From: Acidimicrobiales bacterium
Lineage (GTDB): Bacteria > Actinomycetota > Acidimicrobiia > Acidimicrobiales > Palsa-688
Direction: 5' to 3'
Assembly: GCA_035533095.1 (NCBI GenBank)
Contig: DATLUM010000050.1
Location: 1 to 64,000, forward strand
DNA: 64,000 bases
The notes beneath the pieces are model-generated. The model ran no database searches. It was not told where the DNA came from and saw only the letters and a program-made list of their open reading frames with translations. Positions within the stretch are counted from its first letter, which is position 1. Every line of letters begins with the position of its first letter. The translations under genes and the position numbers were made by a program. Shown piece by piece: positions 4,845 through 6,585 of this stretch.

Positions 4845-5529
4845 CGCTCGGCAGCGTCCGGCGGTAACTGCCCTGGAAGGGCGGCGCCTCTACCTGTGCA
4901 CCGCCGACCGGCCGGACCTGGAGGACTTCCTGAGGGAGTGCATCCGCGGTGGAGTCGACGTCGTGCAGTTGCGCGACAAGCGCCTCGACGCTCGCGACCT
5001 GATCAGCCGTGCCGAGCGCGCCATGGCAGTGTGCGCGGAGCACGGCGTGCCGTTCGTCCTCAACGACCGTCCCGATCTCGCCCTCGCGGCGGGGGCCGAC
5101 GGAGTTCATGTCGGCCAGGACGACACGCCACCGGCGGTAGCCCGGCAGATTCTCGGGCCCGACGCCATCGTCGGTCTTTCCACCCACGCACTCTCCGAAT
5201 GGGCGGCCGCCGAGAGCGAACCGGTCGACTATCTCTCCGCCGGTCCGGTGACCCCGACACCGACGAAACCGGGCCGTCCCGGCACCGGCGTGGGGTACCT
5301 GAGGGAAGTCGCGTCGACGCCCCAGGGCCGCCTCGACGGGAGACCCTGGTTCGTCACCGGTGGAGTGACCCCCGAGACGATCCCCGCCATGGCCGCCGCC
5401 GGAGCGCGGCGATTCGTCGTGGTCAGGTACCTGACCGAATCCGGCGAACCGCAGAGTGCCGCACGGGCGCTGCGGAAAGTGATCGACGAGCAAGCCGGCT
5501 GGGGCCCGGCGGTCTGCGAACCTCTTTAG
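4837..5529 (+). CDS. thiE: Thiamine-phosphate synthase
   Basis: Joins the pyrimidine (HMP-PP) and thiazole phosphate moieties to give thiamine phosphate. It is a 230-residue TIM-barrel. Family motifs are clear: DVVQLRDKRLDARDL (pyrophosphate-binding region), FVLNDRPDLA, GADGVHVGQDD, SAGPVTPTPTKP, and VTGGVTPETIPAMAAAGA near the end. The GTG start overlaps thiS. The stop codon lies inside the palindrome CCTCTTTAGAGG and overlaps the stop of the convergent hydrolase gene. No TPP riboswitch was recognised upstream. Confidence 0.95.
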   Translation: MDDARQRPAVTALEGRRLYLCTADRPDLEDFLRECIRGGVDVVQLRDKRLDARDLISRAERAMAVCAEHGVPFVLNDRPDLALAAGADGVHVGQDDTPPAVARQILGPDAIVGLSTHALSEWAAAESEPVDYLSAGPVTPTPTKPGRPGTGVGYLREVASTPQGRLDGRPWFVTGGVTPETIPAMAAAGARRFVVVRYLTESGEPQSAARALRKVIDEQAGWGPAVCEPL

Positions 5530-5532
5530 AGG
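5516..5532. repeat. Stop-codon palindromic element, copy 1
   Basis: On the minus strand the sequence TAAAGAGGTTCGCAGA begins with the stop codon of the hydrolase gene (5526-5528) and continues into the end of thiE. On the plus strand it forms CCTCTTTAGAGG, which contains the thiE stop. The same core recurs at five other gene ends in this window. Confidence 0.6.
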
Positions 5533-6317
5533 TGCTGCCGGTCCAGCCACCCGATGAGGATGGCGATGGCGCGCGGGTCATGGCGGAGACGGTGCGCCGC
5601 GCCTGGCAGCACCCGTAGCTCGACCTCGCCTCCTGCGGCGTCCGCAAGCGCCCTCGCGTCGAGCACCTGGATGACCTCGTCGTTGGCACCGTGGACCAGC
5701 AGGATCGGGCGTGGCGGGATCTTGCCGATGAGGCTCAGGGGCCGCACCTCCCGCAGTTCGCGTGCCCACGCGTCGAGGTCGGGTGGGAAGTTCGGGTCGC
5801 GGATGACCCCTACCGCTCGTGCCTGGGCGACGAACCTGCGGGCGTCCGCAGCCCTTTCCCCGAAGTCCGCCGGAGCCGCGAAGGCAGCCACACCGCGCAC
5901 GCGCGGATCCTCGCCCGCGGCACAGATCGCGAGCGCGCCTCCTGCCGCGAACCCGCACAACCACGCGCCGTCCACACCCGGCGCGCTCAGCAGCGCGTCG
6001 GTGGCGGCCTTGAGGTCGGCCAGCCAGCCACCAAGCGAGAAGTTGCCAGTCGACTGCGAGGTGCCGCGGAAGCTGAACGTCAACACAACCCAGCCGGTGT
6101 CCGCGGCGAGCCGGTCCGCCAGTTCCTCGAACCCGCGGCTCGAGACCGTGCTGTCGTTGGACTCCGACGGGAAGCCGTGGCAGAGCACGAGCCCGTGACG
6201 GCCGGCGCCTCCGGCAGCAGAGGGGGCGGGACGCGCCAAGTAAGCGGCCAGCGTGGCGTCGCCTGATTCGATCGAGAAGGCGCCGCTCGGGGAAGTCACC
6301 CGTTCACTCTCGCGCAC
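5526..6317 (-). CDS. Alpha/beta hydrolase-like protein lacking the nucleophile serine
   Basis: A 263-residue alpha/beta-hydrolase fold protein. The oxyanion-side HGFPSES motif (near residue 48), the strand-helix pattern, a late Asp in LVHGANDEV and a late His in GAAHRLRHD are all in place. At the nucleophile elbow, where GxSxGG is expected, it reads CGFAAGG, with Ala124 (codon GCG) in place of serine. It may therefore be a binding protein, use another mechanism, or be an inactive relative. The closest familiar family is the KANL3/Tex30 or osmC-linked hydrolase group. It is convergent with thiE and lies downstream of the structured leader at 6341-6585. Confidence 0.75.
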   Translation of the reverse strand: MRESERVTSPSGAFSIESGDATLAAYLARPAPSAAGGAGRHGLVLCHGFPSESNDSTVSSRGFEELADRLAADTGWVVLTFSFRGTSQSTGNFSLGGWLADLKAATDALLSAPGVDGAWLCGFAAGGALAICAAGEDPRVRGVAAFAAPADFGERAADARRFVAQARAVGVIRDPNFPPDLDAWARELREVRPLSLIGKIPPRPILLVHGANDEVIQVLDARALADAAGGEVELRVLPGAAHRLRHDPRAIAILIGWLDRQHL

Positions 6318-6340
6318 GGTCGACCTCGGCGTAGAGAGAG

Positions 6341-6550
6341 GCGAGGGGCCGCCCTGAGGCGACCCCTCGCTCGATCTTGCTGGATTGCAGGGCGCTTCCT
6401 TACGCGCCGGGCGGGACCGGCTCCCGGCCGGAGAACACCCCGGGTAGCTGGCTCGGATTCACCAGGTGGTCCAGGCGCCGCCTAGCGGCCAGACACCTCC
6501 GAGGTCCCAAATCGTTGACTGCTCAGCTGGACCACCTCCTTTCCTCGGTG
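6341..6550 (-). ncRNA. Candidate structured leader or small RNA
   Basis: This lies in the 323-base gene-free stretch 6318-6640. Read on the minus strand, a very strong ribosome-binding sequence, AAAGGAGGTGGTCC (6529-6542), can pair over 11 bases with CTGGACCACCT (complement of 6464-6474). That stem encloses two small hairpins, ACCT-CGG-AGGT and GCCGC-TAG-GCGGC, giving a three-way junction. A GC-rich hairpin at 6341-6370 (8 bp, one mismatch, 4 bp, loop CTGA) follows, just ahead of the hydrolase start. The GTG inside the ribosome site opens a 17-codon frame ending at TAG. The fold was worked out by eye and no known RNA family was recognised. Confidence 0.35.
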
Positions 6551-6556
6551 ACACGA

Positions 6557-6585
6557 ATGCTACCGGGAGGAGTGGCCCGCGCCAA
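6557..6585 (-). promoter_or_regulatory. Sigma70-like promoter for the structured leader
   Basis: On the minus strand, TTGGCG (6580-6585) and TAGCAT (6557-6562) are separated by exactly 17 bases. Each matches four of six consensus positions. Transcription would start about seven bases after TAGCAT, just ahead of the AAAGGAGGTGGTCC sequence. Confidence 0.4.

What the first reader, a model, noticed from the sequence alone, without database searches (positions are those of the whole stretch)
6341..6585. Possible structured leader with an occluded super-Shine-Dalgarno on the minus strand
A good promoter, a 14-base near-perfect complement to the 16S rRNA 3' tail, an 11-bp distant complement that can mask it, two nested hairpins making a three-way junction, and a terminal GC-rich hairpin all fall in 245 bases upstream of the serine-less hydrolase. 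This is the build of a cis-regulatory RNA or a small RNA. The 17-codon frame inside (ends EVSGR) may be a leader peptide.
Basis: partly seen in the sequence, partly recalled or inferred. Interest (0 to 1): 0.6.

Follow-up and report, generated by a model that had tools for sequence, protein, structure and literature searches.

The report
Phylum-wide translated pseudoknot small RNA
The stretch is one copy of a small RNA found across many actinobacteria (a distant relative of the catalogued 'Ms_IGR-5' RNA) in which a tiny, apparently translated reading frame is base-paired to the rest of the molecule, so that ribosomes and RNA folding should compete for the same bases.

Summary
On the minus strand lie a promoter, a very strong Shine-Dalgarno (SD), a distant complement that can mask it, a short reading frame and a terminal hairpin. 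It is a divergent relative of Rfam RF02471 (Ms_IGR-5, actinobacterial sRNA): 33.6 bits, below the 45-bit cut-off, but my covariance model and RF02471 mark the same loci in distant genomes. It is usually single-copy, in 137 of 396 sampled genomes of the phylum.

Two findings go beyond the annotation. (1) All 227 distinct elements examined keep a 10-17-codon frame at SD spacing. Starts are ATG/GTG/TTG or near-cognates (CTG here; ATC, ATT, ATA, ACG elsewhere). Eleven elements read the conserved core in another frame, so translation itself, rather than the peptide, appears conserved. (2) The frame pairs with downstream RNA through two covarying helices, one a pseudoknot absent from the Rfam model.

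Neighbouring genes differ between lineages; in mycobacterial-type loci the downstream genes are convergent. So it is a free-standing transcript, not generally a leader of the hydrolase. Best guess: a ribosome-gated regulatory RNA. Targets and output are unknown and the switch is inferred.

The parts
6557..6585 (-). promoter TTGGCG-17-TAGCAT
   Evidence: Read directly; -10-like box conserved at fixed distance from the SD in 227 relatives. Predicted RNA 5' end near 6549-6551.
6526..6543 (-). extended SD GAAAGGAGGTGGTCCAGC (strand A of helix H1)
   Evidence: Complement of 16S tail read in relatives; core unique in genome; near-invariant in relatives
6482..6526 (-). short reading frame CTG...TAG, 14 codons (L/M)SSQRFGTSEVSGR*
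   Evidence: Frame kept in 227 of 227 distinct elements; ATG subset 49/52 in frame versus 2 and 3 in the other frames
6503..6508 (-). GGGACC, 5' strand of pseudoknot helix H3, inside the frame
   Evidence: Covaries with 6413-6418
6489..6497 (-). GGTGTCTGG, 5' strand of helix H2, last codons of the frame
   Evidence: Covaries with 6443-6451
6477..6489 (-). small hairpin H4 GCCGC-TAG-GCGGC with the stop codon in its loop
   Evidence: Sequence; 86% of cells paired in near relatives, one double change
6460..6475 (-). segment C, CCTGGACCACCTGGTG, complement of the SD (strand C of H1)
   Evidence: fold; H1 87% paired in near relatives but mostly one-sided changes, weaker across the phylum
6455..6460 (-). 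conserved GAATCC motif, unpaired in the H2/H3 architecture
   Evidence: Seen in most relatives just before segment D
6443..6451 (-). segment D, CCAGCTACC, 3' strand of helix H2
6388..6442 (-). 3' domain: outer stem H6 (6438-6442 with 6388-6392) and hairpin H5 (6423-6427 with 6407-6411) whose loop holds GGTCCC (6413-6418), the 3' strand of H3
   Evidence: H5 and H6 covary on a sequence-only alignment; H3
6341..6370 (-). terminal GC-rich hairpin, probable terminator (tail CTCTCTCT, not a clean T run)
   Evidence: Sequence and fold; hairpin at same place in relatives; not listed by the consensus terminator scan

Best explanation
This is a free-standing transcript of about 220 nt, made from its own promoter, in a family that contains Rfam RF02471. 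Its 5' end is a very short reading frame with an exceptionally long SD and, here, a weak near-cognate start codon (CTG). The second half of that frame is base-paired to the 3' domain: GGGACC with the loop of hairpin H5 (pseudoknot H3) and GGTG..TGG with segment D (helix H2). The SD can itself be masked by segment C, and possibly by GGGACC. Proposed mechanism: ribosome gating. An initiating ribosome competes with masking of the SD; an elongating ribosome must unzip H3 and H2. Translation of the frame thereby sets which fold the RNA adopts and whether its 3' domain is exposed, so the RNA reports initiation capacity to a target in trans. Shown here: homology, conserved frame, covariation of H2 and H3, conserved -10 box, no common downstream gene. 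Inferred: that the frame is translated in this organism, that the folds exchange, and the whole output side.
For: RF02471 match over its full length; R1 and RF02471 mark the same places in distant genomes; frame kept in 227/227 elements, ATG subset 49/52; near-cognate starts at offset 13 in 96 of 100; core read in another frame in 11 elements while the frame stays open; H3 93.6% paired, 27 double-change cells versus 4.6 shuffled, slid versions at most 55%; H2 swap test 182 versus 29; -10-like box conserved; differing neighbours; expression of relatives and ribosome-protected reads in mycobacteria.
Against: No expression data for this organism; no target or output known; ribosome-protected reads can come from co-sedimenting RNPs, as the authors themselves say; H1 has little covariation and fades across the phylum; folding with ribosome masks did not clearly show a switch; in the window's order the hydrolase is a constant downstream neighbour.
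Confidence: 0.45

Rival explanations
1. Ribosome decoy: the long SD captures 30S subunits, and the short frame and stable fold hold or recycle them, damping translation generally. Segment C, which resembles the 16S tail, could also mask SDs of other mRNAs.
For: 18-nt match to the 16S tail, unique in the genome; segment C resembles the 16S tail.
Against: A decoy needs no covarying H2/H3 between frame and 3' domain, nor a conserved stop; segment C is not kept in Streptomyces- and mycobacterial-type relatives.
Confidence: 0.2
2. Small-peptide gene or dual-function sRNA: the 10-17-residue peptide itself acts, and the structure only tunes its synthesis.
For: EV[A/T/S]GR* recurs in most clades; frame always open.
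Against: The recurring residues lie on paired bases; N-terminal residues and length vary; 11 of 227 read the core in another frame and make unrelated peptides.
Confidence: 0.15
3. Cis attenuator: translation of the frame controls read-through of the terminal hairpin into the downstream hydrolase gene.
For: Hydrolase downstream on the same strand in all 13 loci of the window's order; its start lies 24 nt after the hairpin.
Against: Other lineages have other genes or convergent genes downstream; no antiterminator that overlaps the terminal hairpin is visible (inference).
Confidence: 0.12
4. Chance: an ordinary GC-rich intergenic stretch with accidental complementarity.
For: GC-rich regions fold stably; consensus promoter and terminator scans are negative.
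Against: Conservation across the phylum, covariation, frame conservation and published expression of relatives.
Confidence: 0.01

Closest known systems
Rfam RF02471, Ms_IGR-5, actinobacterial sRNA
   Same: Full-length match; reciprocal model hits at the same loci; same layout of SD, frame, segment D and 3' hairpin domain in the RF02471 members read.
   Different: Below the curated cut-off (33.6 versus 45 bits); the Rfam structure has only local hairpins, without H2 and the H3 pseudoknot; the reading frame is not part of the annotation; CTG start.
infC of E. coli (AUU start codon, initiation-factor IF3 feedback); from general knowledge
   Same: Recurrent weak near-cognate start codon with a strong SD.
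   Different: Here a 10-17-codon frame on a separate structured transcript; no link to IF3 was tested.
Leader-peptide attenuators (trp, erm type); from general knowledge
   Same: Short frame under an SD, paired with downstream RNA, followed by a terminal hairpin.
   Different: No shared downstream gene, no run of regulatory codons, peptide frame not conserved across clades.
Dual-function sRNAs such as SgrS and RNAIII; from general knowledge
   Same: Structured regulatory RNA that contains a short reading frame.
   Different: Here peptide sequence and even frame are not conserved, and the frame itself is paired to the 3' domain.

Membership tests
RF02471 Ms_IGR-5 | score at or above the curated gathering cut-off (45 bits) | tested here: not met
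   33.6 bits, E 3.9e-6
RF02471 Ms_IGR-5 | homology to members: independent models mark the same loci | tested here: met
   R1, built from the window's relatives, hits for example G077:C1:5201048-5201241 where RF02471 hits 5201054-5201239 with 175.9 bits
RF02471 Ms_IGR-5 | expressed as a small RNA | not testable with these tools
   Published for relatives; conserved -10-like box
cis-acting leader or attenuator | same downstream gene on the same strand across the family | tested here: not met
   Met only inside the window's order (13 loci); other lineages differ
leader peptide / translated short frame | frame conserved between start and stop across relatives | tested here: met
   227/227; ATG subset 49/52 versus 2 and 3
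small-peptide gene | conserved peptide sequence | tested here: not met
   Only E-V and neighbours recur, over paired bases; 11 of 227 use another frame
structured RNA | compensatory base changes | tested here: met
   H3, H2, H5/H6

The most novel reading that the evidence does not exclude
A phylum-wide translation-status sensor. The RNA uses an extreme SD, often with a near-cognate start codon, to measure initiation capacity (free 30S subunits or initiation-factor stringency), and a ribosome passing through a frame locked in a pseudoknot converts that into a trans-acting signal from the 3' domain. The act of translation matters; the peptide does not.
Probability: 0.3. Interest if true: 0.85.

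Novelty: new variant of a known kind. Interest (0 to 1): 0.6.

Why it matters
Ms_IGR-5 is catalogued as a small RNA; I found no function for it in the open-access papers searched. That every relative examined holds a short reading frame, base-paired to the rest of the molecule by covarying helices, turns an orphan sRNA into a testable ribosome-gated regulator in laboratory models (M. smegmatis, S. lividans). Recurrent near-cognate start codons at a fixed SD spacing would be natural cases of selected weak initiation. The Rfam model could be rebuilt with H2 and H3 to recover many missed members.

Tried and rejected
The gathering-score Rfam scan listed only a tRNA; the sub-threshold scan revealed RF02471, and the other weak Rfam hits there (cold-seep-1, CC2171, miRNA families) are at chance level. 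The local hairpin of SD GGTCC with GGGACC is compatible in 94.7% of cells but shows no double change; kept only as a possible alternative state. Ribosome-masking folds with ViennaRNA were indecisive because pseudoknots are not modelled. The alignment-free swap test had no power for H3, because most elements share the same six bases. The 16S tail pattern is absent from the window's own assembly and was read from relatives. Paper searches for a function of Ms_IGR-5 or of the mycobacterial neighbour locus found none.

Full report
What was checked. The fold is more stable than any of 200 shuffles (z -3.2). The 16S 3' end read in relatives is GGCTGGATCACCTCCTTTC, so the SD matches 18 nt with one G-U pair. 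The core AAAGGAGGTGRTC is found once in the whole genome.

Identity. The normal Rfam scan finds nothing here, but a permissive scan matches RF02471, Ms_IGR-5, over its full length at 33.6 bits, E 3.9e-6, below the 45-bit cut-off. DNA similarity finds the element in 29 of 41 related genomes. An RF02471 search over 246 genomes of the phylum finds 49, only 24 over the cut-off. A covariance model R1, built from 24 sequences none of which reaches deeper than 44 bits or so with RF02471 except L044 (45.5), finds 94 of 198 genomes of the class and 137 of 396 of the phylum, nearly always one copy, and marks the same places as RF02471 in distant genomes. The window element is thus a divergent relative of Ms_IGR-5 that fails its curated cut-off.

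The reading frame. In the first 50 loci a short frame begins shortly after the SD and ends just after the conserved GAGGTG core. Over 227 distinct elements every one has such a frame, of 10-17 codons. That count allowed any of eight start codons in a ten-base window, so it is partly permissive. The stricter subset is the 52 elements with an ATG in that window: 49 are in frame with a stop at the core, against 2 and 3 for the other frames. Starts are CTG 65, TTG 65, ATG 49, ATC 17, GTG 13, ACG 9, ATT 6, ATA 3; stops are TAG 176, TGA 32, TAA 19. The five near-cognates sit at offset 13 from the first G of GGAGG in 96 of 100 cases, and ATG never does. The set was enriched for some clades by the pattern search and many sequences are related, so these counts are not independent events. 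In 11 elements the core is read in a different frame (GGA GGT GGC instead of GAG GTG GCT), giving unrelated peptides, yet the frame stays open. I infer that translation is conserved rather than the peptide.

The structure. Six helices were defined from one sequence and counted on alignments. H2 pairs the last codons of the frame with segment D; H3 pairs GGGACC of the frame with the loop GGTCCC of hairpin H5, a pseudoknot. H3 was not part of the model used for the larger alignment, and on 99 sequences it is 93.6% paired with 27 double-change cells (shuffles 4.6), while slid versions reach at most 55%. Pair types include GGGACC/GGTCCC, GTGACC/GGTCAC, GCGACC/GGTCGC, GTGACG/CGTCAC and CGGACT/AGTCCG. 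H2 has double changes in 7 of 9 pairs; since that alignment leans towards H2, an alignment-free swap test was added: a genome's own segment pairs better than one from another genome in 182 cases, worse in 29. On a sequence-only alignment of 24 sequences H5 and H6 also covary. H1, which masks the SD, is compatible (87% in near relatives) but shows only one-sided changes there and fades across the phylum. The Rfam-like hairpin of SD with GGGACC shows no double changes. Without pseudoknots, folding favours H1 in the free RNA (mean 0.78).

Context. In the window's order an alpha/beta hydrolase lies downstream on the same strand in all 13 loci compared. In Streptomyces-type relatives the neighbours are PAS-domain, PdxH-like or citrate-synthase-like genes (names from my reading of the sequences). 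A -10-like box is conserved at a fixed distance upstream of the SD, and sequence conservation starts sharply at ACC ten bases before it. So the element is its own transcription unit; read-through into the hydrolase in this order is possible but not general.

Literature. Relatives are expressed in Streptomyces (PMC8079986; PMC8780764) and overlap an RNA detected in M. smegmatis (PMC10454040). Ribosome-protected reads are reported for MS_IGR-5 homologues in M. abscessus and M. smegmatis (PMC4974804), with the authors' own caution about co-sedimenting RNPs. I found no described function and no description of the reading frame in the papers searched; the library holds open-access papers only.

Mechanism. 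The anatomy suggests competition between ribosome and fold: the SD can be masked, and the second half of the frame is locked in H3 and H2, which a translating ribosome must open. I propose a ribosome-gated regulatory RNA acting in trans through its 3' domain. What is shown is homology, frame conservation and covariation; exchange of folds, translation in this organism and the output are inferred. Rivals are a ribosome decoy, a peptide gene and a cis attenuator, in that order.

Noticed in passing
window 5526-6317 (-): The downstream alpha/beta hydrolase has GFAAG in place of the usual GxSxG nucleophile motif; the same GFAAG is found in 8 of the 13 neighbouring-gene relatives that my motif search could read, so the serine loss is old.
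   Followed up: partly
L180, L183, L185-L187, L190, L194-L198: Shorter variants of the element in other families of the phylum lack the GGGACC strand of H3 and read the GGAGGT core in a different frame, mostly ending GGGSS*.
   Followed up: partly
all elements: Stop codon TAG is used in 176 of 227 elements, while TGA is the commonest stop of neighbouring genes (143 TGA, 70 TAG, 15 TAA); RNA pairing of the stop hairpin or a release-factor preference could explain it.
   Followed up: no
all elements: Near-cognate starts (CTG, ATC, ATT, ATA, ACG) lie almost always 13 nt from the first G of GGAGG, whereas ATG lies at 15-18 nt, as if codon strength and spacing were traded off.
   Followed up: partly
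L002, L003, L005 and window 6308-6318 (-): A GCGCGAGAGTG motif is conserved just after the terminal hairpin at the hydrolase start in near relatives.
   Followed up: no
G385, G142, G019: Two matches in these genomes; whether these are true second copies or assembly duplicates was not examined.
   Followed up: no
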